Below are positions 15,571 to 32,838 of a DNA stretch of 64,000 bases, one piece after another. Below the pieces are notes generated by a model. That model was not told where the DNA came from. It ran no database searches and was given only the letters and a program-made list of their open reading frames with translations. This DNA comes from Chitinophagales bacterium. Lineage in GTDB: Bacteria > Bacteroidota > Bacteroidia > Chitinophagales > Saprospiraceae. The translations under genes and the position numbers were made by a program. Location: contig JAAFJN010000015.1 of assembly GCA_013298845.1 (NCBI GenBank), forward strand, positions 35,067 to 99,066. Reading direction: 5' to 3'. Position 1 is the first letter of the stretch. The number at the start of each line of letters is the position of its first letter.

Positions 15571-15690
15571 GAACATTTGAACACCGAACATTTGAACATC
15601 GAACATTTGAACACCGAACATTTGAACATCGAACATTTGAACACCGAACATCGAACACCGAATTTTAAACACCGAATATCGAATATTGAA
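15571..15690 (+). repeat. Heptad tandem array A1 (GAACATY/GAACACC units)
   Basis: The array starts 11 bp after the stop of the dynamin-like gene. It consists of degenerate 7-8 bp units read as GAACATTT, GAACACC and GAACATC, about sixteen copies, decaying to GAATATC/GAATATT at the right end. Together with A2 it forms an imperfect inverted repeat; the stretch GAACACCGAATTTT occurs in both arms. Confidence 0.85.
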
Positions 15691-15800
15691 ATAATGAAAA
15701 TACGCCGTAGAGCATTATTTGCCATTATCCCGGGTTTAAAATTATAAGGCCATTTAGGGCTGATAATGGAATGTGATCAGGTTCTCTTACACACAAATAC
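15691..15800. other. Spacer between heptad arrays A1 and A2
   Basis: No coding potential is seen. The spacer contains its own inverted pair CCATTATC (15722-15729) / GATAATGG (15762-15769), so the whole 15571-15890 stretch could fold as nested stems between the convergent dynamin-like and DUF2490 genes. Confidence 0.5.
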
Positions 15801-15890
15801 TTCAACATTCCATGTTCGGTTCGGTGTTCGATGTTCGGTGTTCGATGTTCGGTGTTCAAAATTCGGTGTTCAATTGTTCGATGTTCAAAA
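15801..15890 (-). repeat. Heptad tandem array A2 (inverted partner of A1)
   Basis: On the plus strand the units are TTCGGTG and TTCGATG (about eleven); on the minus strand they read GAACACC/GAACATC. On the minus strand the array begins 7 bp after the stop of the DUF2490 gene, so it too lies at a gene 3' end in sense orientation. Confidence 0.85.
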
Positions 15891-15897
15891 ATGCGCC

Positions 15898-16650
15898 TTA
15901 CAAACGCAAGTCCAAGGCAGAACTAAAGGCCAGCAACAAGGTGTGGTTATTTTCCACCCGGATACCGTCGCTTTTGAACACCAATTGATTCAGGTACCCC
16001 AGTTCCAGTCGGCCTACTTTGGGGAAACGGTACCCTACCCCGGCAAACGCCCGGTTTTGGTCAAAAATATTGTGCCCTACATTTTTTCCAAAAGCCACAA
16101 ACATCTCATCAAAGGCCGTAAAATACCAGGATTTCTCGGCAATAGTACGCCCGTGAAACGGCACCGAAGCCCGGTGCATTAACCGAAACCGGTTGCTGTA
16201 CACGGCGGGTCCCGGCTTGTATTCGGTACCTGAAGCCACCGGATTGTGCACGTTGCGTTGCTCCAACCGGAAACGGTGTACCAGTTCAAAACGCGCGTTG
16301 TTTTGCCGCAATTGAATTTGTTCCCAAAAACGGTGTTCGGGGAAACTGGTTTTGGCGGCAAAAGCCCCGTAAGGATAGGTTTCCACAAAACAATAACCAG
16401 CAGTGGCCACTGTACTGGTATTAAGGTGGTAATTCAGGCCACCGCGCAACAGGAGTTGTTGGGCATCCAATCCCCAATCGGCGCGGCGCAATTGCGCTTC
16501 GAGGTGAAGCCCCCATTGAGGCGCAAATTTGTGGGAGCCAGCGTACGAAATCCAGGTGTTGTTGTTTTGGGTAAACTGACGAGGGGTTGCGTTTTGAGCG
16601 CTGAGGATTTGGCCACTGACGAGCAGCAGCAAAATGAGTATTTTTTGCAT
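15898..16650 (-). CDS. DUF2490 outer-membrane beta-barrel protein
   Basis: A 250-aa product with a clear signal peptide (residues 1-18, ILSAQ) followed by alternating beta strands typical of DUF2490: WISYAGSHKFAPQWGLHLEAQLRRAD, LLLRGGLNYHLN, FWEQIQLRQNNARFELVHRFRLEQR, VYSNRFRLMHRASVPF and a final strand ending SSALDLRL. The family forms small outer-membrane barrels with no established role. It follows the SulP/Dab block on the same strand but is separated from it by a strong terminator at 16727-16792, so it is probably transcribed on its own. Confidence 0.8.
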   Translation of the reverse strand: MQKILILLLLVSGQILSAQNATPRQFTQNNNTWISYAGSHKFAPQWGLHLEAQLRRADWGLDAQQLLLRGGLNYHLNTSTVATAGYCFVETYPYGAFAAKTSFPEHRFWEQIQLRQNNARFELVHRFRLEQRNVHNPVASGTEYKPGPAVYSNRFRLMHRASVPFHGRTIAEKSWYFTAFDEMFVAFGKNVGHNIFDQNRAFAGVGYRFPKVGRLELGYLNQLVFKSDGIRVENNHTLLLAFSSALDLRL

Positions 16651-16726
16651 GATTTTTTTTAAATTTTAGCGTGTTTTTTTGCACGTACGACGATAGCCGA
16701 CGGCAATCGCCCACGCGCAAAAAAAC

Positions 16727-16792
16727 GGGCTACGCTTACCTGTTACAAACAAACATATATATAGGTAATAAAAAAAAACAGGTGCGTAGCCC
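16727..16792 (-). terminator. Terminator after the first SulP gene (copy 1 of a duplicated terminator)
   Basis: The 9-bp arms GGGCTACGC (16727-16735) and GCGTAGCCC (16784-16792) extend inward by ACCTGTT/AACAGGT. On the minus strand the hairpin is followed by a T-rich run. An almost identical hairpin, including the loop stretch TGTTACAAACAA, follows the second SulP gene at 23526-23580, so the terminator was copied with the gene. Confidence 0.82.
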
Positions 16793-16819
16793 TCTTACAG
16801 TACGAAATGATGAAGGTTA

Positions 16820-18418
16820 TTAGGCGAATGCCTTTTTCTTTTTACGAGCGGATAAATGGTGTTCTGATACCTGCGTGTGCTGTTCCAAACCCACTAACAT
16901 CACGGTACCGCCTTCGGCTTCGTAATCGTGTTTAAAATGGTGCAGGTTATCCATCACCGAGTGATCTACCAGGTGCGTGGCTTCCAAATCAATTTCCACT
17001 TCCATACCGGGCGGAATGGAGTCCAATTTGCGTTTAATACCGAGATAATTGGTAAAAACGGCGGCATCATTAATTTTGAGCAAATACTTGGTTTCGGTAA
17101 ACGATACTTCCGTGGGGGCTTTAAAAATCACGCTCAACGGTTTACCATTCAGGATATTGATCAAGATTTCGGTAAGAATACCGGCCGCAATACCAATCAG
17201 CAGGTCGGTCGCGAGGGTAAACACAATCGTGACCACAAAAATGAGCAGTTGTTCTTTGCCAATGTGCAAAGTGTGCATAAACTCCTTGGGGTGCGCCAAC
17301 CGAATCCCGACGGTAATCAGCATCGCCGCAAGGGCTGTATTGGGGATTAACTCGATCAAATGCACCGCCAACAACACAAAAACCAAGAGGAAAAAGCCGT
17401 GGAAAAAATTGGCCCAGCGGGTGCGTGCGCCGTTGGCCACGTTGGCCGATGAACGGGCCACTTCCGAAATCATGGGTAAACCACCGAGTATGCCCACTAA
17501 AATATTACCGGCCCCAACGGCAATCAAATCGCGGTTGGCATCCGACTTGCGGCGCATGGGATCCACCATGTCAATGGCTTTTACCGTCAGCAAAGATTCC
17601 AATGAACCCACCAAGGCAAACATCACCACGTATTTGAGAAAAATGCCCGTCATCGCAATACCGCTAAAATCCACGTTTATTTTAATGTTTTCCAACAAAT
17701 TACCGATGTGTACCAACGCGTAAGCCGGTTCGGTGTGCTGAAAATCGAGCATCAACTCGGCGGGAATGGCAAACATCAAAACGGCCAGCGGAGCGGGTAT
17801 TTTTTTAATGGGATGGGCAATAAACGGCCAAATCAGCATAATACTCAAACATACCAAACCCACCAACGTCGCCTTGGGGTCCATGTGCAGGACAAAATGC
17901 GGAATTTCGGCCAGCAATTCCAACGGCTCTTTGCCTTTGGTATCCGCCGGATTAATGTCAAGCAACACCGGAATTTGTTTGGCAATGATAATTAAACCAA
18001 TGGCCGCTAACATGCCGTGCACCGCCGAAAGTGGGAAAAAATCGACTAATTTACCCAGTTTCAGCACGCCAAACAACACCTGAATCACTCCGGCCACCAC
18101 AATTGCTCCCAGGGCCAGGTGCCAGCCTTGCTCACCGCCGCCAAACTCCCCAACGGCCCCAACGGCAATCACAATCAGGCCGGCTGCCGGACCCTTCACG
18201 GTCAGTTTTGAACCGGCAATCAAACTCACTACCAATCCTCCGATAATAGCGGTAACCAAACCCATCAGGGGCGGAAACTCGGAGGCTTTGGCAATCCCTA
18301 AACTCAAAGGTAAAGCCAGTAAAAAGACAATAAAACCCGAAATCGCGTCGGTACTGAAATGTTCTTTCAAACCGGCCAGGCCATCTGCTGGCAGTGTTTT
18401 TTTATTGTTATTTTTCAT
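16820..18418 (-). CDS. SulP-family anion transporter with STAS domain (copy 1; probable bicarbonate transporter)
   Basis: The 532-aa product has about 12-14 membrane helices in the SulP fold starting near residue 25 (TDAISGFIVFLLALPLSLGIA), the family signature GPAAGLIVI, and a cytoplasmic STAS domain from about residue 430 to 525 (LEATHLVDHSVMDNLHHF). The ATG at 18418 gives the same length as the second copy at 23598-25196. SulP proteins carry sulfate, bicarbonate or other anions; the adjacency to dabAB, with 63 bp between the dabB stop and this start, points to bicarbonate. It is almost certainly the third gene of dabA-dabB-sulP. Confidence 0.88.
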   Translation of the reverse strand: MKNNNKKTLPADGLAGLKEHFSTDAISGFIVFLLALPLSLGIAKASEFPPLMGLVTAIIGGLVVSLIAGSKLTVKGPAAGLIVIAVGAVGEFGGGEQGWHLALGAIVVAGVIQVLFGVLKLGKLVDFFPLSAVHGMLAAIGLIIIAKQIPVLLDINPADTKGKEPLELLAEIPHFVLHMDPKATLVGLVCLSIMLIWPFIAHPIKKIPAPLAVLMFAIPAELMLDFQHTEPAYALVHIGNLLENIKINVDFSGIAMTGIFLKYVVMFALVGSLESLLTVKAIDMVDPMRRKSDANRDLIAVGAGNILVGILGGLPMISEVARSSANVANGARTRWANFFHGFFLLVFVLLAVHLIELIPNTALAAMLITVGIRLAHPKEFMHTLHIGKEQLLIFVVTIVFTLATDLLIGIAAGILTEILINILNGKPLSVIFKAPTEVSFTETKYLLKINDAAVFTNYLGIKRKLDSIPPGMEVEIDLEATHLVDHSVMDNLHHFKHDYEAEGGTVMLVGLEQHTQVSEHHLSARKKKKAFA

Positions 18419-18481
18419 AAAAATCAATTTTAATAGAAGTAAATGGTACAGTGTAGTGGGTTAATAAAAATCGTTTAAGAA

Positions 18482-20350
18482 TTACGACGAGCGGTAGGCC
18501 ACCTCGTGGTAGTTTTTTTCGTGCGGGCCTAAAAACACCCGTGCGTACATCCGAAACACGCCAAGTCCGTCCAAAATCAGGCTGAGTGCAGTAATGCCCG
18601 TCAGCAAATATTGGTTGTGGTGAATATGACCCAAAATCAAATCTTCGCCGATAAAAGTGGGTGACACCGGAAAACCCGACAACCCTAAACTGGCCACCAA
18701 AAACACCACCGATAACCGGGGATGCTCGTACGAATGCCCGTGAAAACGATCCAGATTAATGGATTCACCCGCTTTTTTCAGTTGCCGTAAACAGGCAAAA
18801 CCAACCGCCCCAAAAACAATAATCCCACTCAAAAACAGGTGTATCTGATCGAAACCAAATTGTTCGTTAAAAGCAATGGACAACGATGTAAATAATTGAT
18901 TCACAATAACTAAAAACCATGCCGCCTGTGCGTTATTCCGCTCGGTAAATGCCCGTAAAGCGGCAACCAGACCAATGGCCCCAAAAACAGCGGGCAAATT
19001 ATGCTCGATGCCATCGGGTACCTGCTCTTTGTGGTAAACCATGTACAAACCCGCCGCAAAAACCGGCCACAAAAACACCGTTAACCACCGGTCTGGAATG
19101 AATTGAAACCATTGCCCAACCCGTTTGAGCGGTTGCCACAACCAGCGGTACATCAACCCATCAAGGTTCCATTCTTTGACCGATAGCACGTACAACGTTA
19201 ACTTTATTTTGCCCCAAAAACGATCTTTGTTGTCGTGTTGCGGCGGCGTAAAATGGAAAAACTGATCGTGCATCAGGTAGTTGAGCACCGAGGGCGATAC
19301 CAACAACTGGTAGGTCCGTAAAAAAGCATTGCAGGCAAAATGAAACAAGGCCAAAGCCTCTAATCCTAAACCAACTTCCATAAAAATAATGCCGATTTGG
19401 GCCACCGATGAATAGGCAATTTGGGTTTTGACCGATGACTGCACCCGCGAAATGGCCGTGGCCACGATACTGGTCGCGAACCCTAAAGCAATCACAATCG
19501 CCTGAAAAACGTGGTTATTTTCCCAAAAAGGATACGTGCGCAACAACAAAAACACCCCCATGTGCACCGACAACGATCCGTAAAATATCGCGCTTGAGGT
19601 TGTTGGGCCTTCCATCGCCCGGGGTAACCACGACGAGAAGGGCAATTGCGCCGATTTGATGGCCGCAACCAATAAAAACACCAGCGGAATGATCAACTGA
19701 AAAGCCGGTTGTTCGATAATGGCCGCGTGGTGCGCCTGCAAATTGTGCAATTCAAAAAAGGTAATGCTTTTTTCAAAGGCATGGTGGCACATCCAAATGG
19801 CCAGCAACATCCCGATATCGGCCAAACGGTACAACGACACCACTTTTAGGGCGTTTTTAACGGGCAAATACCGTTCGCGGTAAAACGCAATCAGGAAAAA
19901 AGAGGCCACCCCAATAATCTCCCAACCCACAAATAAAGTCTCGAAATTTCCGGAAAATATAATGCAGTTGATACCCAGATAAAACAGCAAAAGGTTGTTA
20001 AAAAAGCGTTTAAACCCTTTCTCCCGGTGCATATAATACCGGGAAAATACCGATACCAAAAACGTTAAGATCACCGAAACCAAACCGTAGACCATCGTAA
20101 TGCGGTCAAAAAACAAATCAATCGAAAAAGTGGTCGTGTTGTTGTGGTACAAGGTCGGCCCCTGATAATGTACATCCGGGAAGCCTTCCCCAATCCACGA
20201 AGCGGTAAAACCAATCATGGTTAAAAAATGCAGCCCAATGACTGTGATGGCCGTACCAAACAATAATTTTTCCTGTTTATTGGTCGGAAAAGCGGAAAGA
20301 ATCAGCCCAACCAAAGGAATCAAAACAAATAATGGAAGTAACTGGCTCAT
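18482..20350 (-). CDS. dabB: DabB: proton-conducting NuoL-like subunit of a DAB inorganic-carbon transporter
   Basis: The 622-aa NADH-quinone-oxidoreductase subunit 5-like membrane protein contains the antiporter-core helices, for example NCIIFSGNFETLFVGWEIIGVASF, the proton-channel region LLVAAIKSAQLPFSSWLPRAMEGPTTSSAIFYG and QSSVKTQIAYSSVAQIG. It is not taken as a complex I subunit because no other nuo or mrp gene is present and its start overlaps the dabA stop by ATGA. In Halothiobacillus DAB1 and staphylococcal MpsAB, the equivalent subunit carries the cation flux that energises CO2 hydration by the DabA partner. Here it is a little longer than the typical DabB/MpsA. Confidence 0.88.
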   Translation of the reverse strand: MSQLLPLFVLIPLVGLILSAFPTNKQEKLLFGTAITVIGLHFLTMIGFTASWIGEGFPDVHYQGPTLYHNNTTTFSIDLFFDRITMVYGLVSVILTFLVSVFSRYYMHREKGFKRFFNNLLLFYLGINCIIFSGNFETLFVGWEIIGVASFFLIAFYRERYLPVKNALKVVSLYRLADIGMLLAIWMCHHAFEKSITFFELHNLQAHHAAIIEQPAFQLIIPLVFLLVAAIKSAQLPFSSWLPRAMEGPTTSSAIFYGSLSVHMGVFLLLRTYPFWENNHVFQAIVIALGFATSIVATAISRVQSSVKTQIAYSSVAQIGIIFMEVGLGLEALALFHFACNAFLRTYQLLVSPSVLNYLMHDQFFHFTPPQHDNKDRFWGKIKLTLYVLSVKEWNLDGLMYRWLWQPLKRVGQWFQFIPDRWLTVFLWPVFAAGLYMVYHKEQVPDGIEHNLPAVFGAIGLVAALRAFTERNNAQAAWFLVIVNQLFTSLSIAFNEQFGFDQIHLFLSGIIVFGAVGFACLRQLKKAGESINLDRFHGHSYEHPRLSVVFLVASLGLSGFPVSPTFIGEDLILGHIHHNQYLLTGITALSLILDGLGVFRMYARVFLGPHEKNYHEVAYRSS

Positions 20351-22893
20351 AATGACGCTTCGTTGATAATGTGAACAGGTAAGTTTTCTAACGTTGAATC
20401 CGTAATATGGCTGGTCTCCATTTCTTTGGCCGATTCAATCAATTCCAGTACGTCGTTGGCAAACCGGGTTTGGGTTCCCAACGGTTCGTACAATTCAAAT
20501 GTACCGTTTTTAAAATAGTAAAATGCGCCCGTTTTGGGTCGAATGGCCAATAAATGCACCCATTCGTTGGCAAACCACTCGTATAAAGCGGGGTCAGATT
20601 GAATGGTCCGCAATACCACCTCCGGGTCGTGTTCTACCAAAATCATCAGCCGCACCGGGTCGTGTACCTCGACCGTTTGCAAAGGCAAACCGGGGCGCAA
20701 ATCACCGTCGCTGCTGTTGGCCACCCCAATTAACCCCATCACATTGTGGGGCAATTTGGTACCGGCGCCCATTTTTTGGTTATCCACCCGCGAAAAGTAA
20801 TATTCCAGATTAATACCGCCGCACACCGGGGGCAAAGGCCGCATTACGCCCAACAGCAAGGCACCATCGGGGTCCGTGCGGTAATCGTACGAGTTCATAA
20901 AAGCCCGGCGATCCAGAAACAGCCCTTTGGTCAGGTTGCGGTTGCCCACAAAACACAAAGCGTTGGTGCCGTGTCCAAATTCGGGGCGTGGTTCGAATAA
21001 CGAAACTGACCGTTTGCGAATGTCTTCCCGAATTTTTTTAATATCCTGTTTGGTATTGATGGACGCAAACCGGCGCGAGCGTTCTTTGGCGTTCATATCC
21101 AACGCTTTTTCAAAGGTCAGTTTGTGTTCCCGGTGCGCCGCCAACCCGGCTTCGGCTATCTTGTGCTCGTCGTAAAACACCACCACATCGGAAGCAGTAT
21201 CGTGCATGGCCCCCACAAAATGTGTACTGTCTGGAATCACCAGCCCGTTAGCGGCCAAAATAGCCCTTACCTTGGGGTGATTGGCCATAAAAGCGAATAC
21301 CCGGGCGTTAACGGCTCCGGGTCGGCCACTGCAAGCGCCGCAATTATAAGCCCCCTGGTGCGGGTTATTGGCGCTGCTGGAACCGTGCGCCATCACGTAC
21401 ACCAACGGCGCAAAGTGATCTATCATCCCGATACCCCGCAAAAGTGCCTCCACGCGGGTGGCCATTTCGGGCACGGTGAACCCCACTTGCCAGCCATTTT
21501 CGCGGTCATCGGGCGAAATATTTTCCACCTGCAACTCCCCCGTGATACTCATGTGGGTAAACGAATCGGCAAAAGCCGGGTGTTTTTTGGGGTTAAAAAT
21601 ATTCACCACCAATTGCACCGCCGCGACCAATCCCAACGACAACGACCAGAAAAAGCCCTCCAGAAACGTGTGCGTTTTTTTGTTGTACAACAGCGCGTTT
21701 TTGCGTTTTTGGGCAACGTTGTGCTCTTTAATCAAATATTTAGGGGTTACGGGCGCCGGACAAAGTTTTTCGTAAAACTTGCCATTTTCGGGTTGAAAGT
21801 AAAACTCTACCCCAAAAAAGCCGGGACAACCAAACGTGGCACAATGGGGCGCAACGGCTTCGGTGTGGCGGCGGAAGGAGCACTCCCGTTCATCAATGCA
21901 AAATATCGCCTGAAAGCCGTGATCTTGCTGCGGCTCTGTTCGCGGGCCACTGGCGTTCAGGTGTTTTAAACCAACCAATACCTCATCGTAATAATTCCAT
22001 TCAAAGGCATCTTGCCAAAGGGACAATACCTCTTCGCGTTCGGTGCGGGGCGACGGGGCAAACAAATCAATGGGAGCCATCGGGTAACGCTGCGCCAACG
22101 GCAGCCAATCTTCTCCCAACGCAGTGTTTAAGGCGTCAATTTCCATCACCAACTCCAGCATAATCAGGTCTTTGAGCGCAATCTTTTTGGAGTACAAAAT
22201 ACTGTCGGGTTGCGCCTCAATGGTGGCCACCATGCCCGACCAACCGCGGTGCGAAAACTGTTGATCGTACAGGTATTGTTCGTACAAAGCGCTGTCGCCC
22301 ACTACCCTGTTTAAGAGGTCTGGCAAAGAAATATTGGGATCAAGCAGTAGTTTTTGGGCGCTTTTTGTGTTGAAAAAACTGCTATAACTATTGGTCTCCA
22401 AAATCCGAACGGCGTTGAGCAAACCTTCGTTTTCGTACGGAAAATGTTTGATCGCAATGCCCTGATCGAGATAACTACACAAAATACGAAACAACAAAGG
22501 TTGTACTAAATTGTCCAGATTGAGGTGAAACGCTGCTTTCCAACCCATCCGAAGGCGGCCTACGCGTGGGTCTGGGGTGGGTTCGTATTGTTGCGTGAGT
22601 AGTTTTGAGGTCCAAATCCCTACGTTCGCACGACCTTTGCGTTGTTCCAAAATTTGCGCCAATACTTCCGGCCGAATGCGCCCGCTTTTGTACAAATTTC
22701 GGTATTCGTTCAGGTTGAACGTGGGTTGAAACCCAAAAATGGCAGCACCGGTAAATATCGCGTCGTAAAACTTCAGGTGCTGTAAGGCGTGTAAGGAATT
22801 GTGGTGAATAAAATCTTTGAGCGGTGTTTGAGCCGGCAAAAAATGCATCAACTCCTGTAACACATGGTGCTCATCAAATTCATTTGTGTGCAT
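20347..22893 (-). CDS. dabA: DabA (DUF2309): zinc-dependent subunit of a DAB inorganic-carbon transporter
   Basis: The 848-aa peripheral protein belongs to DUF2309 (UPF0753). The beta-carbonic-anhydrase-like zinc site known from H. neapolitanus DabA (Cys, Asp, His, Cys) is intact: Cys332 and Asp334 in FCIDERE, His503 in VMAHGSSS and Cys518 in YNCGACSGRPG. The His-to-Cys spacing of 15 equals that of the Halothiobacillus protein. The complex is thought to hydrate CO2 to bicarbonate one-way on the cytoplasmic side, driven by the DabB ion gradient. It is first in dabA-dabB-sulP and begins 142 bp after the small secreted-protein gene. No clear TAnnTTTG was found in that gap. Confidence 0.93.
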   Translation of the reverse strand: MHTNEFDEHHVLQELMHFLPAQTPLKDFIHHNSLHALQHLKFYDAIFTGAAIFGFQPTFNLNEYRNLYKSGRIRPEVLAQILEQRKGRANVGIWTSKLLTQQYEPTPDPRVGRLRMGWKAAFHLNLDNLVQPLLFRILCSYLDQGIAIKHFPYENEGLLNAVRILETNSYSSFFNTKSAQKLLLDPNISLPDLLNRVVGDSALYEQYLYDQQFSHRGWSGMVATIEAQPDSILYSKKIALKDLIMLELVMEIDALNTALGEDWLPLAQRYPMAPIDLFAPSPRTEREEVLSLWQDAFEWNYYDEVLVGLKHLNASGPRTEPQQDHGFQAIFCIDERECSFRRHTEAVAPHCATFGCPGFFGVEFYFQPENGKFYEKLCPAPVTPKYLIKEHNVAQKRKNALLYNKKTHTFLEGFFWSLSLGLVAAVQLVVNIFNPKKHPAFADSFTHMSITGELQVENISPDDRENGWQVGFTVPEMATRVEALLRGIGMIDHFAPLVYVMAHGSSSANNPHQGAYNCGACSGRPGAVNARVFAFMANHPKVRAILAANGLVIPDSTHFVGAMHDTASDVVVFYDEHKIAEAGLAAHREHKLTFEKALDMNAKERSRRFASINTKQDIKKIREDIRKRSVSLFEPRPEFGHGTNALCFVGNRNLTKGLFLDRRAFMNSYDYRTDPDGALLLGVMRPLPPVCGGINLEYYFSRVDNQKMGAGTKLPHNVMGLIGVANSSDGDLRPGLPLQTVEVHDPVRLMILVEHDPEVVLRTIQSDPALYEWFANEWVHLLAIRPKTGAFYYFKNGTFELYEPLGTQTRFANDVLELIESAKEMETSHITDSTLENLPVHIINEASL

Positions 22894-23035
22894 ACAAGAT
22901 GAATATTATAGTGCTTCTATTGCCCGACTTTGCGGCGCAATAAGACACGTTCGACAAAATAAAAAAAATGGGAAAAGCGGATGGCAACAATCCGCATGGG
23001 GCAAAAAAAGGTAAAAGCCCTAAAAAAAGGTAGGA

Positions 23036-23580: not shown

Positions 23581-23597
23581 TAAATTAGAGATGGGAT

Positions 23598-25280: not shown

Positions 25281-25337
25281 CGGCAAATTCCGTTTTCAAT
25301 AGTATTACTTTCATAAAAAATTGTAAAACTATTAATT

Positions 25338-26834
25338 ATGGACACCACGACACTCCTCAGCCCCGCCTCCACAAACCAACTTATAACCACCACCCCAGTC
25401 CCCATTACGGTTACCTACGGCGACGGAATTGGCCCCGAAATTACCGAGGCCGTTTTGCGCATTTTGCGCGCCGCCGGAGCGCAATTGGACGTTGAAACCA
25501 TCGAAATTGGGGAAAAAGTGTACCTCAGTGGCAATACATCGGGTATCCCCGACAGCGCGTGGGAATCATTGCAGCGCACCAAAATTTTGCTCAAAGGCCC
25601 CATTACTACCCCGCAGGGCAAGGGTTACAAAAGCCTGAACGTGACCATGCGCAAAGTATTGGGCTTGTACGCTAACGTGCGCCCCTGCGTGACTTACGCG
25701 CCATTTGTGGCCACCAACCAACCCAATATGGACGTGGTTATCGTGCGTGAAAATGAAGAAGACCTTTACGGCGGTATCGAACACCGCCAAACCGACGAAG
25801 TGGTGCAATGCCTCAAACTCATTTCCCGCCCCGGTACCGAAAAAATTATTCGTTACGCTTTTGAATACGCCCGCATCAATGGCCGCAAAAAAGTAACTTG
25901 TTTTACCAAAGACAATATTATGAAGGCCACCGACGGAATGTTCCACCAAATTTTCCGGGAAATTGGAGCCGAATACCCCGAACTGGAAAAAGAACACATG
26001 ATTATTGACATTGGTACGGCCAAATTAGCGGTACAACCCAGCCGCTTCGATGTTATTGTAACCCTCAACCTCTACGGTGATATTATTTCGGACGTTGCCG
26101 CCGAAGTGAGCGGATCGGTGGGATTGGCCGGTTCTTCCAACATTGGCGAAAATTTTGCCATGTTCGAGGCCATCCACGGTTCGGCACCCGATATTGCCGG
26201 CAAAAACATCGCCAACCCGTCGGGTTTGTTGGGCGGAGCGGTGCAAATGTTGTTGCACATTGGCCAAAAAGACGTGGCCGAAAAAATTCAAAATGCGTGG
26301 TTAAAAACCCTCGAAGACGGCCAGCACACCGCCGATATTTTTAACGAAGTACACAGCCGGGCGCGCCTCGGTACCCGCGAATTTGCCGATGCCGTTATCG
26401 CCCGATTGGGTCAAAAACCCCAAACCCTTCCCGCCGCCGCCTTTGGAAATAACCAACAGCAAACTATTTCGGTGGAACTGCGCACCTATCCGCCCGCCCA
26501 AAAAGACCTGATCGGGGTGGATGTGTTTTTGCACTGGCCCCAACGCGATGCCAACGTTTTGGGCGAACAAATCAAATCCATCAAAGTGGGTAACATGGAA
26601 TTAACCATGATCACCAACCGGGGCGTAAAAGTGTGGCCCAATGGCAATCCGGCTACTTTTTGCACCGATCATTGGCGTTGCCGCTTCAAGTCGGCGGATT
26701 ATAAAGTATCACCGTTCAGCGACGTTATGGACATTGTGCGGGAATTACACGCCCTGGGTTTTGATGTGATTAAAACCGAAAATCTTTACCTTTTCGACGG
26801 GGAACCGGGCTTTACGCTGGGTCAAGGACAGTAA
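25338..26834 (+). CDS. icd: Isocitrate dehydrogenase, Thermus-like long form
   Basis: TCA-cycle enzyme converting isocitrate to 2-oxoglutarate. The dehydrogenase core starts at residue 26 with VTYGDGIGPEI; the isocitrate-binding region is SLNVTMRKVLGLYANVRP, followed by IVRENEEDLYGGIEH, KDNIMKATDGMF and IHGSAPDIAGKNIANPSG with the coenzyme-binding part. The 498-aa length comes from an extra C-terminal domain of about 130 residues (from about 365) as in the Thermus thermophilus enzyme. The coenzyme (NAD or NADP) cannot be assigned safely by eye. The gene faces away from sulP copy 2, and its stop codon directly abuts heptad array B1. Confidence 0.9.
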   Translation: MDTTTLLSPASTNQLITTTPVPITVTYGDGIGPEITEAVLRILRAAGAQLDVETIEIGEKVYLSGNTSGIPDSAWESLQRTKILLKGPITTPQGKGYKSLNVTMRKVLGLYANVRPCVTYAPFVATNQPNMDVVIVRENEEDLYGGIEHRQTDEVVQCLKLISRPGTEKIIRYAFEYARINGRKKVTCFTKDNIMKATDGMFHQIFREIGAEYPELEKEHMIIDIGTAKLAVQPSRFDVIVTLNLYGDIISDVAAEVSGSVGLAGSSNIGENFAMFEAIHGSAPDIAGKNIANPSGLLGGAVQMLLHIGQKDVAEKIQNAWLKTLEDGQHTADIFNEVHSRARLGTREFADAVIARLGQKPQTLPAAAFGNNQQQTISVELRTYPPAQKDLIGVDVFLHWPQRDANVLGEQIKSIKVGNMELTMITNRGVKVWPNGNPATFCTDHWRCRFKSADYKVSPFSDVMDIVRELHALGFDVIKTENLYLFDGEPGFTLGQGQ

Positions 26835-26872
26835 GAACATCGAACACCGAACACCGAATGTCGAATACCGAA
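26835..26872 (+). repeat. Heptad tandem array B1
   Basis: The array starts at the very base after the icd stop codon: GAACATC, GAACACC, GAACACC, GAATGTC, GAATACC, GAAGG. It has the same sense orientation and unit family as A1, and is followed by a run of T residues (26875-26882). Confidence 0.82.
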
Positions 26873-26934
26873 GGTTTTTTTTAATGGTATAAGGATAAAA
26901 TGCTTCGCAAAGCAGTATGCGGACACATTCGGAT
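26873..26934. other. Spacer between heptad arrays B1 and B2
   Basis: Short A/T-rich spacer with a small hairpin (TGCTTCGCAAAGCA). An open frame starting at 26900 runs through array B2 into the MFS gene, but its product there is only a translation of the repeats, so I do not count it as coding. Confidence 0.5.
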
Positions 26935-27018
26935 TTCAACATTCGGTGTTCGGTGTTCGATGTTCGGTGTTCGACGGTTCGGTGTTCGACGGTTCGGTGT
27001 TCGATGTTCGGTGTTCAA
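26935..27018 (-). repeat. Heptad tandem array B2 (inverted partner of B1)
   Basis: Units on the plus strand are TTCGGTG and TTCGATG with two TTCGACGG variants, about eleven units. The lead-in TTCAACATTC is shared with array A2 at 15801-15810. A T-run (27020-27028) follows on the plus strand, so B1/B2 pairing would make a terminator for icd. Unlike the other arrays, it is not downstream of a minus-strand gene. Confidence 0.82.
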
Positions 27019-27142
27019 ATTTTTTTTTAGCATCTTTGGGAATTTTTTGGAAAGCGACGCCGTTGGAGGACTTGTGCCTTGCGGCAATTTCCGACCTTTG
27101 CGACGAGGTCGGGCGCTTTCCACAAAAATTCTTGCAAAAGTT

Positions 27143-28351
27143 ATGCTACAAAACATTTACAGCCATTGGCTCAATTCATTTAAAGGTTTACCGCGCGGCG
27201 TTTGGTTACTGGCCATCGTGAATTTTATCAACCGCTGCGGCAGTATGGTGCTCATTTTTTTGTCGGTTTACCTGACCAAACACCTCGGATACACCATCAA
27301 AGATGCCGGTTACGTCATGACCTTTTTCGGAGTGGGTGCCATTGTGGGGATTTGGCTGGGTGGCAAACTCACCGATATTATTGGTTATTACCGGGTACAA
27401 CTCATCTCCCTGCTCCTCAACGGCGTACTGCTGTTGTTGATGTTGCTCGTGGAAAGTTTTTGGGCCATGTGCCTGACCGTGTTTACGCTCAGTGTCATTT
27501 CGGAGGCATTCCGGCCTGCCAATCAGGTCGCCACGGTACTGTACACCGAACCGGAAACCCGCACCCGTTCCATATCGGTACTCCGGCTGGCCTTTAACCT
27601 CGGTTTTACGATTTCACCGGCGTTGGGCGGCATTATTGCGGGGCATTTTGGCTGGCATTGGTTGTTTTGGGCCGATGGTATTACGTGTATTGCGGCAGCG
27701 GTGGCGTTGCGGCTTTTGTTAAAACCCGTGGCGCAGAAAAAAACCGCCGAGGCCGTGGCCGCTTCCAATTTACCCAATATCCCCCCGTACAAAGACCGGA
27801 GTTTTCGGCCGTTTTTGTTGTTTACCTTTTTTGGAGCAATGGCCTTTATGCAAATGATATGGACGGTACCGGTATTTTTTAAAGACGTTTATTTATGGTC
27901 GGAAGATAAAATTGGTTGGGTAGTGGCCCTCAACGGCGCCATTGTATTTTTGGTCGAAATGCCGATGATATTTTACATTGAAAACCGCCGTTCCACGTTG
28001 TTTTACACCCAATTGGGGCTGCTGTTGTATTTTATCAGTTATCTTTGTTTTATCTTTCCGCTGGGTGGAATGCTGGCTGCCATTTTATTTATGGTATTCA
28101 TTTCGTTTGGTGAAATGTTTGTAATGCCCTTTAGTGGTAATATGGCCTACGCCAAAGCCTCGAATTACGCCAACAAGGGAAGTTATATGGCGGCTTACGG
28201 TTTATCGTATTCCTTTGCCAATATCTTTGCGCCGCTATTGGGCACCCAAATTATCGCCACCTGGGGTTTCAACTGGCACTGGACGGTAACGGGCATGTAC
28301 GCATTAGTGGCGCTGGTGGGTTTTCGGTATTGGGTGAGTGAAGAGCGTTAA
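27143..28351 (+). CDS. MFS transporter (DHA1/multidrug-type)
   Basis: I place the start at the ATG at 27143 (MLQNIYSHWLNSFKGLPRG), giving 402 aa and 12 membrane helices; the open frame continues upstream only by reading through heptad array B2. The MFS loop 2-3 motif is GIWLGGKLTDIIGYYRVQ (G-x-L-a-D variant), and the second half repeats the six-helix pattern. The substrate is unknown; the arrangement resembles sugar-efflux or multidrug exporters. The gene is flanked by the repeat region upstream and by the rpsP promoter region downstream. Confidence 0.85.
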   Translation: MLQNIYSHWLNSFKGLPRGVWLLAIVNFINRCGSMVLIFLSVYLTKHLGYTIKDAGYVMTFFGVGAIVGIWLGGKLTDIIGYYRVQLISLLLNGVLLLLMLLVESFWAMCLTVFTLSVISEAFRPANQVATVLYTEPETRTRSISVLRLAFNLGFTISPALGGIIAGHFGWHWLFWADGITCIAAAVALRLLLKPVAQKKTAEAVAASNLPNIPPYKDRSFRPFLLFTFFGAMAFMQMIWTVPVFFKDVYLWSEDKIGWVVALNGAIVFLVEMPMIFYIENRRSTLFYTQLGLLLYFISYLCFIFPLGGMLAAILFMVFISFGEMFVMPFSGNMAYAKASNYANKGSYMAAYGLSYSFANIFAPLLGTQIIATWGFNWHWTVTGMYALVALVGFRYWVSEER

Positions 28352-28381
28352 ACGCGTTTCTTCGGGAAAATTCAAAAAATA

Positions 28382-28414
28382 TTTGTCTAAATTAAAAACA
28401 TTGTTTTACCTTTG
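28382..28414 (+). promoter_or_regulatory. Bacteroidota promoter of rpsP
   Basis: TTTG at 28382-28385 (-33) and TACCTTTG at 28407-28414 (-7) with a 21-bp spacer, the best promoter match in the window. The predicted transcript has an untranslated leader of about 80 nt before rpsP, long enough for a regulatory structure; GCCGGATGCTACGTAGTGTAGG in it contains a short palindrome. Confidence 0.72.
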
Positions 28415-28499
28415 CGCCCCGATTGAAAAGCCGGATGCTACGTAGTGTAGGTAATTCGGCGAGATTCTATCTCATTTTTAAATTTTCTAAACTTAAACA

Positions 28500-29036
28500 A
28501 TGGCAGTAAAAATTCGTCTGCAACGCAAAGGCCGTAAAAAGGCACCATTTTACCACATCGTAGTCGCTGATGCGCGTTCACCCCGTGATGGTCGCTTCAT
28601 CGAAAAAATTGGTACGTACAACCCACTCACCGTTCCGGCTACCATCAGTCTCCAGAACGATCGCGCATTTCACTGGATCATGGTAGGTGCACAACCTACG
28701 GATACCGTTTCTGCCATCCTGAGTTTCAAAGGTGTAATGTACCAAAAACACCTTCAGGTGGGTGTAAACAAAGGTGCACTTACGCAAGAACAAGCCGATG
28801 CTAAACTCGCAGCGTGGATCGAAAATAAAGAAGGTGCAGTTGCAGCGCGTAAAGTTGCTACCGCAAAACAAAAAGAAGAATTCCGCGTTAAGGTGGACGG
28901 TATTGCTAAGGTAAAACCGAAACCCGTAGTGGAAGAGGTAGCACCAGTAGCCGAAGAAGCAGAAGCAGCAGCCGAAGCAACTGAAGAAACTGCGGCACCC
29001 GAAGCAGCAGCGGAAGAAACACCAGCGGCTGAATAA
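28500..29036 (+). CDS. rpsP: 30S ribosomal protein S16 with acidic C-terminal tail
   Basis: The first 80 residues are canonical bS16: [24 protein letters not shown], then [14 protein letters not shown] and the [17 protein letters not shown] segment. The 178-aa length is about twice that of E. coli S16. The extra part is a Lys-rich linker followed by an Ala/Glu tail ([34 protein letters not shown]), a form seen in Bacteroidota S16. Normally rimM follows rpsP; here a terminator and an unrelated helical-protein gene follow instead. Confidence 0.95.
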
Positions 29037-29140
29037 TTATACTTCGACTTAGCCGGTTTTGTGCGTAAGATTCTTGTCCGGCACAAAAGACGCTCAGTAT
29101 AAAATATCTTTTTAGGATAAAGACTCTATTCGAGTCGAAT

Positions 29141-29180
29141 AAGACCTGGTAAAGCGCCCTCGTGTGCTTTACCGGGTCTT
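29141..29180 (+). terminator. Rho-independent terminator after rpsP
   Basis: A 15-bp stem with one mismatch (AAGACCTGGTAAAGC at 29141-29155 and its partner at 29166-29180) with a 10-nt loop and a T-run (29179-29184). It ends about 46 bp before the next start codon at 29226. Confidence 0.88.
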
Positions 29181-29225
29181 TTTTCAATAATACACTCTTT
29201 TTGAACTCAATATACATTTCTCATT

Positions 29226-30611
29226 ATGCAGGAATTAGACGAAAAATATTACAACCGACTCCAGGAAATTGCGGGTGCAATTCAGGAATCCCCTACCCTC
29301 GCCCAATACATGGAAGAGGAAGAAGATGAACTTTACAATGAGTTGCGCCAACAGTTTGAGCCTTATCTCTCCGAACTGCACCACCTGGTAGCCGCCGAAG
29401 CACCGCTGCAATTGGTGACTTTTGAAAAATACCTGTTAAACGAACTTTTCGAAGGCTTATACCTTCCCCGCGTATTGGGTTACGCGGCGTTGCGCGGCGA
29501 AATCAGCGACCAATACCGCTACGTGCGCCCCAACGACCACTTTAAAGATGTGTTGATTGCAATTTGCAACAGCCCTCAATTTGAACAACTAAAAAAACGC
29601 ATTGGCCAAACCATTCAGGTGGGTTTTGCCCTGTCCAGCGACATCTGGATTACCAACCTCCTGAGCCTCGTGGACAACAAACGCGTCCGCGCATTTTTGG
29701 CCGCTCAAAAATCCGACCGCTTCCGCGATGTTCGCGACCGCCAGGAATTGTACACCCGTTACGCTCGTCAGTTGCGCAACGAAATGTACTTCTCCGCCGA
29801 TTTCCCAACGCAATTGGGTGAAATGAAAGCCAATTTCTCGGCTTTGCGCCAATTCCTGCTCAAGCGCTTCGAAGCCGGTGGCGACAACAGCAGTTTGCAC
29901 GCCCAAATTCAGGGTTTCCTCAACAACGAACTGTTTTTTAATACGGAAGAATACATGGAAATGCTCGCCATGTACGGCAATTACATGGACATGGACGCGC
30001 CCACGCGTGAATTGGTGTCAAAACACTTTGAGCGCGAGCGCAAATCATTCCCCGAATTTGCCGAAAAATTCCTGCGTTTCCTCCTGTACATGCACCGCAC
30101 CAACGGCATCAGCAGTACCAACGACGAGCGCATGAGCACTATCGTTAGCAAAACCGGCATTGATAAAATCAGCGATTATTACCGCATTGCCGATAAAATC
30201 CACAGCCTCGGTTACGTTCACCAGGACGCCATCGAAGCCGTACAGGATTTCTACTCCACCCACGAAGGTTTGTCGGTAGAAAGCGAATGCCTCCGCTACC
30301 TGATCCTCAATTATTTCAACCGCCTGATCAACGGCCTTACCGAGCGCGATTACGCCGACTACTTCGAACTCAACAAAATATTTGGGTTGTACATGCGTAT
30401 TTTCGACAACCAGCAGTTCAACCAGTCTATGGAGAAGTACTCTATGACGTACGTGAACAAACTTCTCAAAAAATATACAGACAAACGTAGCCGCGATTAC
30501 CAAGACATTAAGAAATTTGTGTCTCATAATTTCGTTGAATACGGTTTCTTAAAAGATAAAGAAGTCGTGGAAATGTTCAAAACCCGTCGTAAACGCAAAA
30601 AGGCGGAGTAG
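29226..30611 (+). CDS. Helical protein of unknown function
   Basis: A 461-aa soluble protein without signal peptide or membrane segment; I do not recognise a family. It is almost entirely alpha-helical by composition, acidic at the N-terminus (AQYMEEEEDELYNELRQQFEP) and basic at the C-terminus (MFKTRRKRKKAE), which could fit a nucleic-acid or ribosome-binding role, though this is only a guess. Codon use resembles that of the ribosomal gene upstream. It is 30 bp from lepB on the same strand and separated from rpsP by a terminator, so it is probably co-transcribed with lepB. Confidence 0.65.
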   Translation: MQELDEKYYNRLQEIAGAIQESPTLAQYMEEEEDELYNELRQQFEPYLSELHHLVAAEAPLQLVTFEKYLLNELFEGLYLPRVLGYAALRGEISDQYRYVRPNDHFKDVLIAICNSPQFEQLKKRIGQTIQVGFALSSDIWITNLLSLVDNKRVRAFLAAQKSDRFRDVRDRQELYTRYARQLRNEMYFSADFPTQLGEMKANFSALRQFLLKRFEAGGDNSSLHAQIQGFLNNELFFNTEEYMEMLAMYGNYMDMDAPTRELVSKHFERERKSFPEFAEKFLRFLLYMHRTNGISSTNDERMSTIVSKTGIDKISDYYRIADKIHSLGYVHQDAIEAVQDFYSTHEGLSVESECLRYLILNYFNRLINGLTERDYADYFELNKIFGLYMRIFDNQQFNQSMEKYSMTYVNKLLKKYTDKRSRDYQDIKKFVSHNFVEYGFLKDKEVVEMFKTRRKRKKAE

Positions 30612-30640
30612 TTATTCACAACAAATTCAACAAATAAAAC

Positions 30641-32245
30641 ATGTCAATACTCATTTTCTTGATATTGCTTTACGTGGGTAACAGTTTTACCCTGACCAAA
30701 CTGTTTGAAAAAGCAGGTGTTGATCCTAAAAAAGCGTGGATTCCGGGTGTTGCAGCGGTAGAATGGTGCAAAATTGTGGGTCGAAAGCCCGTTTATGCCC
30801 TTTGGTTATTGGTGCCGGTGGTGAACTTTTTTATTTACGCCGGTCTTTGCATTGACATGATTCGCTCTTTTGGCAAACATGGCTTTTGGGAATCGGTGGT
30901 GGCGGTAATTTTCGCGCCCCTACCCTTCTACCAAATTGGCAATGACCCCAACGCAAAATACGCTGGTCCGGTGCTGGAACAGGAAAAAGAGTACCATTTG
31001 CAGTACGTTGAGGCGGTGGAGAAAAAGGACAAGTTGGCCCTCAAAAAATTGGAGACCAACAATCCTTTTCGCAAGTCGGCCCTGCGCGAATGGGCCGAAG
31101 CGGTTATTTTTGCCGTTTTTGCGGCGGCGTTTATCCGTATGTTCATTTTTGAAGCCTACGTGATTCCCACGCCCTCGATGGAAGGCACCCTGAAAGTAGG
31201 TGACTTTTTGTTCGTGAGCAAACCCAGTTACGGTTTGCGCCTGCCCATGACGGTGATTCAATTCCCCTTGATTCACAACCGTTTTAGCAATGAAAAAGGT
31301 ATGTTGGGCCGCGAATCGTACCTCGAAAGTCCCTCGGTTCCTTATACCCGGTTGCCCGGTTGGGAAAGTTTGGAGCGCAATAAACCCGTGGTATTTAACC
31401 TGCCGGTGGGCGATAGCGTTATCGTTACGCCCGACCGTATCTGGGACGTGTACCAATGGCGCCGCGACCCGCGCAATGCCGCTAAAAAAGTAGAGGTGGT
31501 TTCCCGCCCGATTGATAAAAAAGACCACTACATCAAACGTTGCGTCGCCGTTGCCGGTGATAGTATCGTTATTCGGGGTGGACAATTGTACATCAATGGA
31601 CAAGCAGCCGCCAACCCGGAGCACATGCAGTTCATGTATCAAGTGACCACAAAAACCCCGCTGGATTATAAAAAAATTGCCGATTGGGGGGTTGCTGTGG
31701 GTGAATTAATGGGTAATGCCCGCAACCCAAATCAGGCATTTTTCTCCCTTGATGCTCAACAGGTGGAAAAAATCAAAAGCCTAAGCCCGGATGTTACGGT
31801 GCAGCGCGTTTCGATGAGTAACCCGGAACGCCCAACGCCACCAACCTACGTTTTCCCCAACGACGCCAAAGTAAGTGGCGGTTGGAGCGTGGACGATTAC
31901 GGCCCCATTTTTATTCCAAAAGCGGGCGCTACCGTTGAACTCAACGAGCGCAGTTTGGTGTTTTATCGCCGCCTGATTGAGGTGTACGAGAAGAACGAAT
32001 TTAAAATTGCGGGTGGGAAATACTACGTGAACGGCCAGGAAACAACCACTTATACCTTTAAACAAAACTATTACTGGATGATGGGCGATAACCGCCACAA
32101 CTCCGAAGATTCCCGGATCTGGGGGTATGTACCCGCCGATCACATCGTAGGAAAACCGGTTTTGGTGTGGTTTAGCACTAAAAGTGGCTCTATTCGCAAC
32201 GGCATCAACTGGGATCGCATATTCCTTTTGCCGGGAAACATGTAA
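30641..32245 (+). CDS. lepB: Signal peptidase I, long Bacteroidota form
   Basis: Cleaves signal peptides of exported proteins at the outer face of the inner membrane. At 534 aa it is far longer than E. coli LepB. Residues 1-105 hold several hydrophobic helices of a DUF5684-like domain (KKAWIPGVAAVEWCKIVGRKP), a second anchor lies at about 153-173, and the catalytic Ser179 is in PTPSMEGTL. The general base Lys299 is in DHYIKRCVAVAGD, and the conserved box MGDNRHNSEDSRIWGYVP lies near the C-terminus. A large insert between the catalytic boxes is usual for Bacteroidota. The stop is followed at once by heptad array C1. Confidence 0.92.
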   Translation: MSILIFLILLYVGNSFTLTKLFEKAGVDPKKAWIPGVAAVEWCKIVGRKPVYALWLLVPVVNFFIYAGLCIDMIRSFGKHGFWESVVAVIFAPLPFYQIGNDPNAKYAGPVLEQEKEYHLQYVEAVEKKDKLALKKLETNNPFRKSALREWAEAVIFAVFAAAFIRMFIFEAYVIPTPSMEGTLKVGDFLFVSKPSYGLRLPMTVIQFPLIHNRFSNEKGMLGRESYLESPSVPYTRLPGWESLERNKPVVFNLPVGDSVIVTPDRIWDVYQWRRDPRNAAKKVEVVSRPIDKKDHYIKRCVAVAGDSIVIRGGQLYINGQAAANPEHMQFMYQVTTKTPLDYKKIADWGVAVGELMGNARNPNQAFFSLDAQQVEKIKSLSPDVTVQRVSMSNPERPTPPTYVFPNDAKVSGGWSVDDYGPIFIPKAGATVELNERSLVFYRRLIEVYEKNEFKIAGGKYYVNGQETTTYTFKQNYYWMMGDNRHNSEDSRIWGYVPADHIVGKPVLVWFSTKSGSIRNGINWDRIFLLPGNM

Positions 32246-32249
32246 TTTT

Positions 32250-32299
32250 AGTGAAGAGTGAAGAGTGAAGAGTGAAAAACGAAGAGTGAAGAGTGAATA
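32250..32299 (+). repeat. Heptad tandem array C1 (GAAGAGT units)
   Basis: The array starts 5 bp after the lepB stop: AGTGAAG repeated about seven times with one GAAAAAC variant. A 28-bp stretch is repeated in inverted form with one mismatch in array C2, including the GAAWAAC variant unit at the same place. It has the same position and orientation logic as A1 and B1 but a different unit. Confidence 0.85.
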
Positions 32300-32306
32300 A
32301 TATATA

Positions 32307-32369
32307 GGGCCTCTCTGAGAATGCGCAGTTAATTGATAACCAGTTAATTGCGCATTTTTAGATAGGCCC
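32307..32369 (+). terminator. Long hairpin terminator after lepB
   Basis: A stem of about 21 bp with a few mismatches (GGGCCT and AATGCGCA on the left, TGCGCATT and AGGCCC on the right), extended inward by GTTAA/TTAAT, followed by a T-run (32370-32375). It lies just inside array C1. Confidence 0.82.
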
Positions 32370-32490
32370 TTTTTCTTTAAGTTTTCGCTACTTTTTGCAT
32401 TAAAAACCAAACGTTGCTGATTGTGCGTTTTTTAGGCAAAAATATTTGTTGATTTGGGTATCTCAGCACCGCAAACAAGCGTCCTGCGAC

Positions 32491-32669
32491 GAGATGTGCA
32501 TCCCGGAGGTACGGAGAGATGACATCTCAAAGCGGCCACTGCACCCAAAGTGAGCGATTTTTAAACCAGATAACAGTGGTATTCTCAAAAGTGAAATCTC
32601 AACTACCGACCCAAAATTATAACAGGCTCTGAGATGTCATCCACTCCGTACCTCCGGGATGCACATCTC
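32491..32669. repeat. REP-like palindromic doublet
   Basis: Two copies of a roughly 39-bp element in inverted orientation, 32491-32529 and 32630-32669, differing at about three positions. Each copy folds on itself (GAGATGT at one end, ACATCTC at the other, with CCGGAGGTACGG at the tip), like a REP hairpin, and the pair resembles a BIME doublet. The similarity extends outside both copies (ACCGCAAAC near 32469-32477 and its complement near 32680-32690). No transposase gene is nearby. This accounts for most of the 576-bp gap between lepB and the macA-like gene. Confidence 0.72.
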
Positions 32670-32769
32670 GCCGCCGGGCAGTTTGCGGTAGGTAAAAAAT
32701 CAGATTTTTTGACTCGAAACCGCCGACCAAGTTTTCACCCCAAAAAACACCCTACAACGGGCCAATTTT

Positions 32770-32838
32770 CAACTCTTCACTCTTCGTTATTCACTCTTCA
32801 CTATTCACTATTCACTCTTCACTATTCACTCTTCACTT
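32770..32838 (-). repeat. Heptad tandem array C2, running into the 3' end of the macA-like gene
   Basis: On the minus strand the units are GTGAAGA, GTGAATA and GTGAATAAC, about ten in period 7. The array covers the last codons and stop of the macA-like gene (stop at 32822-32824), whose final residues VKSE are read from repeat units. It is the inverted partner of C1. Confidence 0.85.

What the first reader, a model, noticed from the sequence alone, without database searches (positions are those of the whole stretch)
15571..32838. Degenerate heptad tandem arrays at gene 3' ends, arranged as inverted pairs
Seen: six arrays at three loci (A1/A2, B1/B2, C1/C2) made of 7-bp units. Units at loci A and B are GAACATC/GAACACC, at locus C GAAGAGT/GAATAGT, all led by GAA in sense orientation. 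Five of the six arrays begin 0-11 bp after, or overlap, a stop codon. At each locus the two arrays face each other as an imperfect inverted repeat over 60-470 bp of spacer. Known: heptanucleotide STRR repeats occur in cyanobacteria. Inference: a mobile or self-propagating 3'-end element or transcription-end structure not known to me in Bacteroidota.
Basis: partly seen in the sequence, partly recalled or inferred. Interest (0 to 1): 0.75.

Follow-up and report, generated by a model that had tools for sequence, protein, structure and literature searches.

The report
Inverted heptad-repeat arms around swappable cores
Many gene ends in this bacterium carry paired, inward-facing strings of a degenerate seven-letter repeat around a short core; they look like small mobile fold-back elements that fill the gaps between genes, a little-noticed kind of bacterial repeat.

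Summary
Lag-7 arrays: 115 in 1.61 Mb of this genome against 0-3 at lags 5, 6, 8, 10, 11; 141 of 144 lie outside called genes, and neighbours face inward 42 times against 4, 4 and 3 for other arrangements. Strictly measured, 36 of 51 arm edges next to a gene 3' end lie within 15 bp of the stop or past it, 23 at or past it; random points give 33% and 2%.

GAACAYC arms (loci A, B) enclose a dispersed core: 46 whole or partial matches here, none in 41 other genomes of the genus; 27 of the 30 best have arms on both sides. In a 95%-identical relative pair, one heptad-armed element is a clean insertion with inverted ends and an 8-bp target duplication, one mismatch.

Best reading: non-autonomous, fold-back, MITE-like elements with expandable arms. 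Against: no target duplication in this genome; no partner transposase identified; locus C's interior is unlinked to other pairs' interiors. Convergent heptad pairs by stop codons are already described in Xanthomonas (PMC4692102). New: non-G-rich units, several arm families, swappable cores, an insertion event.

The parts
15571..15676 (+). Locus A left arm: GAACATC/GAACACC heptads with 8-base variants (period 15)
15694..15803 (-). Locus A core: copy of the dispersed core, read on the minus strand
   Evidence: nhmmer E 1.3e-15; alignment A1; model hit C7:50741-50869
15808..15888 (-). Locus A right arm, facing inward
26835..26858 (+). Locus B left arm, directly after the stop codon; degenerate units run on for some 15 bp
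26859..26927 (.). Locus B spacer, probably a remnant of a core: 43 bp at 79% to the interior of another GAACAYC pair (E41)
26928..27016 (-). Locus B right arm, facing inward; its outer side is a gene 5' end
32250..32297 (+). Locus C left arm: GTGAANA heptads
32307..32370 (+). Strong terminator-like hairpin inside locus C, followed by a T-run
   Evidence: sequence; fold
32486..32674 (.). Two inverted copies of an independent, dispersed repeat of about 50 bp inside locus C
   Evidence: 24 hits in 18 groups in 1.61 Mb, many without arms nearby
32772..32837 (-). Locus C right arm, facing inward; supplies the last codons and the TAG stop of the HlyD-family gene 32822-34225

Best explanation
Locus A is a copy, and B probably a decayed copy, of a small non-autonomous fold-back element: two arms of tandem degenerate heptads facing inward around a short core with no gene. 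C has the same build with another arm family, but its interior is not linked to other pairs. SHOWN: architecture and number of arrays; a lineage-specific core that sits between GAACAYC arms; arms running up to stop codons; rarity in divergent gaps; arm length and unit differing at two orthologous sites of close relatives; one clean insertion of a heptad-armed element in a relative. INFERRED: copies spread in this genome by DNA transposition through their ends, with the arms as repeated binding sites or as a fold-back; arms then grow and shrink by unequal exchange and conversion while spacer and core decay, so that arms come to fill the gap between genes; copies survive mainly at 3' ends because promoters are spared, and for some units (GTGAANA, not GAACAYC) because every frame read into the arm meets a stop codon.
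For: Inward pairs 42 against 4, 4, 3. Core: 46 whole or partial matches here, 0 of 41 other genus genomes (stricter filters); arms on both sides of 27 of the 30 best, one side of 3, control 96 of 3000; interiors of 12 of 13 GAACAYC pairs linked to another pair, some through leftover units. No RNA fold in 13 cores. Clean insertion in G009 against G007 with 12-bp inverted ends and CGTTCTTT/CATTCTTT flanks; the 6 paired elements with such ends have 8-bp duplications, 4 exact and 2 with one mismatch. Arms about 16 bp in G007 but 247 and 161 bp in G009 at one site, heptad against 9-mer units at another. Own arms match each other better than permuted ones: GAACAYC p < 1/5000, GTGAANA p = 0.03.
Against: No target duplication in G000: mean longest shared flank 4.18 in 38 pairs against 3.96 permuted, highest of 30 permutations also 4.18. 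PF03050 and PF01609 absent; 6 PF01797 matches, 2 contexts seen, both without heptads, 4 not seen. 12 of 25 GTGAANA interiors, window locus C among them, are unlinked to any other. The proven insertion is between divergent genes, not at a 3' end. In G007 and G009 period 7 is not exclusive: lags 8-10 give 2, 6, 6 and 7, 8, 11 segments against 7 and 11 at lag 7. 57 of 141 arrays are not in a called inward pair. GAACACC arrays in other genus genomes lack this core.
Confidence: 0.58

Rival explanations
1. A functional 3'-end module: the transcribed arms pair into a long stem that ends transcription, stops read-through between convergent genes or protects mRNA 3' ends.
For: Arm edges at stops; extreme predicted folds; arrays in 31 of 200 convergent gaps against 6 of 196 divergent; better matching of own arms.
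Against: No U-run after the stem, T-runs lie before the arm; no excess of terminator-like sites; no conserved core fold; core confined to one genome of 42; the window's arrays are not kept beside the orthologous genes of relatives.
Confidence: 0.2
2. Plain tandem-repeat dynamics: arrays grow in place by slippage from local seeds, inverted pairs arise by template switching in small hairpins, and shared interiors are incidental.
For: At one orthologous site G007 has heptads and G009 9-mers; arm lengths differ strongly between G007 and G009; a short hairpin in G007 faces a long two-armed array in G009.
Against: One unit vocabulary at hundreds of sites; a core with 46 matches, nearly always between arms in the sample; a clean insertion with target duplication.
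Confidence: 0.12
3. Binding arrays for a sequence-specific DNA or RNA protein (nucleoid, regulatory or recombination factor) placed at gene ends for a cellular role.
For: Fixed register with position-specific degeneracy: in 473 GTGA-anchored units position 6 is G 209, A 176, T 83, C 5 and position 7 is A in 469.
Against: Several unrelated unit families in one genome and others in relatives would each need a binder; no binder was sought.
Confidence: 0.07

Closest known systems
GGGAATC (GGGANTN) heptad repeats of Xanthomonas, Rehm 2015 (PMC4692102; sections 10 and 13 and passages read)
   Same: Degenerate heptads, over a hundred sites per genome, two sites in convergent orientation in 70 and 75 cases, mostly intergenic, on the coding strand within 50 bp of or overlapping the stop codon, less between divergent genes.
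   Different: Units there are G-rich and can form quadruplexes; the paper generally found no association with mobile elements. Here units have no G-runs, several arm families coexist, and one family has a dispersed core.
TAACTGA heptad repeats of Beggiatoaceae, Cyanobacteria and Bacteroidetes, MacGregor 2015 (PMC4679880; abstract, section 12 and passages read)
   Same: Heptad arrays, stops in all frames in one orientation, overlap with ORF ends, absence from the same gaps of close relatives.
   Different: In its main genome mostly before start codons, short sets, one inverted case; no arms around a core described in what I read.
BrickBuilt MITE of Porphyromonas gingivalis (PMC4596501; outline and abstract read)
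   Same: Bacteroidetes, intergenic, MITE with tandem repeats inside.
   Different: 23-base unit in one block between leader and tail, not two inward-facing arms.
Foldback elements (recalled) and Galileo (PMC4168063; passages read) of Drosophila
   Same: Long inverted ends of variable length, extended by internal tandem repeats, around a variable middle.
   Different: Eukaryotic, with a transposase known for Galileo; no transposase found here and no sequence relation tested.
Cyanobacterial STRR heptads (recalled; search listing only)
   Same: Tandem degenerate heptanucleotides.
   Different: Published STRR sequences were not compared here.

Membership tests
MITE (non-autonomous DNA transposon) | Many dispersed copies of one short gene-less sequence | tested here: met
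   GAACAYC core: 46 whole or partial matches in one genome; not shown for the GTGAANA interior of locus C
MITE (non-autonomous DNA transposon) | Target-site duplication | tested here: not met
   38 pairs in this genome: 4.18 against 3.96 permuted. Met for a heptad-armed element of a relative
MITE (non-autonomous DNA transposon) | Terminal inverted repeats | tested here: inconclusive
   Arms are inverted arrays; no fixed terminal motif beyond a T-rich stretch before AGTGA in this genome; a 12-bp inverted end in G009
MITE (non-autonomous DNA transposon) | Partner transposase with the same ends | tested here: inconclusive
   PF03050 and PF01609 absent, PF01797 six matches with 2 contexts seen and no heptads; other families not searched
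Foldback-type element | Inverted ends built of short tandem repeats, of variable length | tested here: met
   length change in relatives
Xanthomonas GGGAATC-type repeats | Convergent degenerate-heptad pairs at gene 3' ends | tested here: met
Xanthomonas GGGAATC-type repeats | G-rich, quadruplex-capable unit | tested here: not met
   Dominant units GTGAANA, GAACAYC have no run of three G
Intrinsic terminator | Stem followed by a U-run | tested here: not met
   T-rich stretch precedes the arm; no excess of sites. Locus C has a separate terminator-like hairpin
Structured RNA | Conserved fold or known family | tested here: not met
   No RNAalifold pair in 13 cores; no Rfam match at gathering threshold in the window
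REP/RAYT system | Short hairpins flanking a Y1 transposase gene, same as the dispersed repeat | tested here: inconclusive
   The PF01797 gene at C5:100365 has its own hairpins and no heptads; 4 of 6 matches not inspected
Cyanobacterial STRR | Published STRR heptad sequences | not tested
   known to me by recall and a search listing only

The most novel reading that the evidence does not exclude
A cross-phylum class of heptad-armed elements (Saprospiraceae here; Xanthomonas, Nostoc and Beggiatoa from papers) is made and rewritten at gene ends by a dedicated, unit-indifferent machinery that fixes the seven-base register but not the letters; quadruplex formation would be incidental to it.
Probability: 0.12. 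Interest if true: 0.85.

Novelty: new variant of a known kind. Interest (0 to 1): 0.56.

Why it matters
An excess of heptad repeats in bacteria has been noted and left unexplained (PMC4692102, passages). This genome ties one arm family to a lineage-specific dispersed core, and a close-relative pair shows an insertion plus arm growth and unit replacement. Since these units lack G-runs, quadruplexes cannot be the general reason for paired heptads at gene ends. It gives testable predictions (joint gain of arms and core; fast change of arm length) and warns that C-termini and 3' gaps in such genomes are partly written by repeats.

Tried and rejected
Autonomous copy: the one inward same-family pair 0.6-12 kb apart that I found in 1.61 Mb (C5 3792-6687) holds ORFs that look ordinary by eye (the Pfam failed, so they were not scanned). 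IS66 as mover: the relatives' ends (GTAA.., 8-bp duplication) recall IS66 (from memory), but PF03050 is absent here. RAYT/REP as mover: the C5 PF01797 gene has its own hairpins, no heptads. Structured RNA: no fold. 'Stop in every frame' as the unit's purpose: fits GTGAANA and several others, not GAACAYC, so kept only as a possible advantage. Core direction fixed by genes: in 6 co-directional gaps it follows the genes in 5, too few. Locus C 50-bp repeat as the core of an arm family: rejected, it occurs with several arm types and often with none. First edge measurement (42 and 28 of 51): replaced, since could take a chance motif up to 40 bp further out.

Full report
OBSERVATION. The six arrays are present as described. 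Five of six begin 0-11 bp from, or overlap, a stop codon; B2 faces a gene start. The window is contig C7:35067-99066 of an unnamed 6.37-Mb genome, G000; the best matches of one window protein in named genomes are Saprospiraceae MAGs and close kin. I analysed 1.61 Mb of G000 (plus the window; 80 kb chosen because it held arrays). At 17 of 21 matches there are 115 lag-7 segments against 1, 3, 1, 1 and 0 at lags 5, 6, 8, 10, 11. Whole-genome pattern counts are 85 and 85 with control 0 and 0, and 344 and 416 with control 17 and 30.

ANATOMY. Genes were called with my own ORF and codon-usage caller, not an annotation. Of 144 arrays at 16 of 21, 141 lie outside genes; among neighbours less than 600 bp apart, 42 pairs face inward (+-), 4 outward (-+), 4 and 3 are parallel. 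84 of the 141 arrays are in inward pairs, 57 are not; families are GTGAANA (72 arrays), GAACAYC (38), GATNTTN (18), TTAGAYN (8) and other (5). Units vary at fixed positions: in 473 units anchored on GTGA, position 6 is G 209, A 176, T 83, C 5, and position 7 is A in 469.

PLACEMENT. Arrays occur in 31 of 200 convergent, 50 of 778 co-directional and 6 of 196 divergent gaps. On the outer side of an array the neighbour is a gene 3' end in 90 of 140 (median distance -2 bp) and a 5' end in 50 (median 66 bp); on the inner side the split is similar (87 and 52) but distances are large (medians 166 and 235.5 bp). For 38 of 43 inward pairs (5 with mixed or other arms dropped), with edges never moved outward from the detected array, 36 of 51 edges next to a 3' end lie within 15 bp of the stop or past it, and 23 of 51 at or past it, median 2 bp (strictest setting); next to 5' ends 8 of 25 lie within 15 bp, median 36. 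A looser edge rule gave 42 and 28 of 51. Random points in array-free, non-divergent gaps give 33% and 2%. In 14 convergent pairs the median leftover spacer is 5 bp, where array-free convergent gaps have a median of 47 bp. Array-free divergent gaps are longer (median 177 bp), so their low use is not for lack of room. At locus C the HlyD-family gene reads VKSE and its TAG stop out of the array; its long matches in the genus end at query residues 459-464 of 467, so the array has replaced only the last few codons.

CORE. Interiors of 12 of 13 GAACAYC pairs are linked to another pair by blastn, some through leftover units. A profile found 15 copies or parts in 1.61 Mb, locus A among them. A 147-position sequence model found 46 whole or partial matches in G000 and none in 41 other genomes of the genus (stricter filters were in use, so weak copies may be missed). 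Of the 30 best, 27 have at least two units on both sides and 3 on one; random intergenic spots 96 of 3000. RNAalifold gives no pair on 13 cores. Of 15 core places, 9 are in convergent, 6 in co-directional and none in divergent gaps, in both orientations. Of 25 GTGAANA pairs, 13 have an interior linked to another pair and 12, locus C included, do not; one interior family (E22, E23, E27) also occurs with a TTAGAYN left arm (E32). In other genus genomes GAACACC arrays exist (7 of 8 searched); in the 14 of 28 fetched loci that I printed they have other interiors or stand back-to-back (by eye).

MOBILITY IN A RELATIVE PAIR. G007 and G009 are about 95% identical. In 400 kb of each, lag-7 segments number 7 and 11, no longer exclusive (lags 8-10: 2, 6, 6 and 7, 8, 11). 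Of 54 length differences listed, one is a 647-bp heptad-armed element in G009 with ends GTAAAATCTTAG/CTAAGATTTTAC, flanked by CGTTCTTT and CATTCTTT, where G007 has one CATTCTTT and no element. The 6 paired elements with such ends in the two stretches all have 8-bp duplications, 4 exact and 2 with one mismatch; only this one holds lag-7 arrays by the detector. The insertion is in a divergent gap. At another shared site the arms are about 16 bp in G007 (by eye) but 247 and 161 bp in G009, and at a third the unit is a heptad in G007 and a 9-mer in G009. So an armed element has inserted, and arms change length and letters within about 5% divergence.

AGAINST. G000 shows no target duplication. PF03050 and PF01609 are absent; six PF01797 matches exist, and the two contexts I saw are heptad-free. 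No relative close to G000 was at hand (77% nucleotide identity at best in the dynamin region), so the window loci have no true empty-site test. The window's own arrays were not found beside orthologous genes, but relatives do have other heptad arrays there: G006 57 bp after its dynamin gene, and at the locus C gene L171 (GTCGTAA) and L176 (an inverted pair) 19-20 bp after its match. The window's far neighbour was not found beside the orthologue at A (0 of 26), B (0 of 25) or C (0 of 20, 11 of which keep the upstream neighbour); flanks were short (about 1.5 kb for A and B) and several contigs end early. That would also fit arrays as rearrangement joints, which I could not test.

MECHANISM. Best supported: fold-back, MITE-like elements whose inverted ends are heptad arrays. 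Shown: structure, numbers, core-arm linkage in one family, one insertion in a relative, arm turnover. Inferred: transposition in G000, arms as binding sites or fold-back, filling of the gap by arm growth plus loss of spacer. I do not file it as a MITE, because target duplication was tested in this genome and not met; it works like one. A 3'-end RNA role is the main rival: predicted folds are extreme and own arms match better than permuted ones, but the T-rich stretch is on the wrong side, terminator-like sites are not enriched, and the core is confined to one of 42 genomes.

LITERATURE. Rehm 2015 (PMC4692102; sections 10 and 13 and passages) describes the same outer architecture in Xanthomonas with G-rich units and generally no link to mobile elements. 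MacGregor 2015 (PMC4679880; abstract, section 12 and passages) reports TAACTGA heptads, stops in all forward frames, and heptamer assemblages in Bacteroidetes. BrickBuilt (PMC4596501; outline and abstract) is a minisatellite MITE in Porphyromonas. Galileo (PMC4168063; passages) has inverted ends extended by tandem repeats. The searches 'heptamer repeats' + Bacteroidetes (1 paper), MITE + Bacteroidetes + tandem repeats + intergenic (2), Saprospiraceae + tandem repeats + intergenic (0) and 'heptameric repeats' + bacteria + genome (19, listing) showed no description of paired heptad arms around cores in what I read; only this open-licence library was searched.

SPREAD. GTGAANA triplets occur in 9 of 60 genomes searched, G000 included. 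In 80 Bacteroidota loci (1.34 Mb, all centred on one gene) lag-7 segments number 43 (up to 2 of them runs of N) against 3-12 at lags 4-6 and 9-13, with lag 8 at 23. The nearest gene end is a 3' end in 9 of 12 Saprospiria-like cases but a 5' end in 14 of 23 elsewhere, so the 3' preference is not general.

VERDICT. Real, systematic and partly anticipated in print; a new variant of a known kind, with a mobile-element reading that the sequence supports but does not yet prove in this genome.

Noticed in passing
window 32486-32674; 24 hits in 18 groups in 1.61 Mb of G000: A dispersed repeat of about 50 bp (GAGATGTGCATCCCGGAGG..), single or as inverted pairs, sometimes beside AGAC or GAT-type heptads and often with no arms within 260 bp.
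   Followed up: partly
L066 (G000:C5), 100100-101000: A Y1 (RAYT-like) transposase gene flanked by its own ACCTC..GAGGT hairpins.
   Followed up: partly
L270-L289 (G007) and L290-L309 (G009): Many polymorphic small insertions between two 95%-identical genomes, several of repeated types (GTAAAAACTTAG ends with 8-bp duplications; TATACCCAGATTAAAG.. ends).
   Followed up: partly
L290-L309 (G009), about 95.8-96.5 kb and 303.3-303.5 kb: Arrays of period 8 (GGTTTGAR) and 9 (TTCGATTGG) take the place of short or heptad sequence at the orthologous G007 sites.
   Followed up: partly
L171 11571-11604; L176 11558-11764; Flavobacterium and Sphingobacterium loci L193, L197, L220, L237, L244, L246, L248, L250: Other heptad arrays lie shortly after the same signal-peptidase gene in several Bacteroidota, with different units.
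   Followed up: no
window 28500-29036 (+): Ribosomal protein S16 gene with a long C-terminal extension (178 aa; the Pfam domain covers residues 9-67) containing tandem repeats.
   Followed up: no
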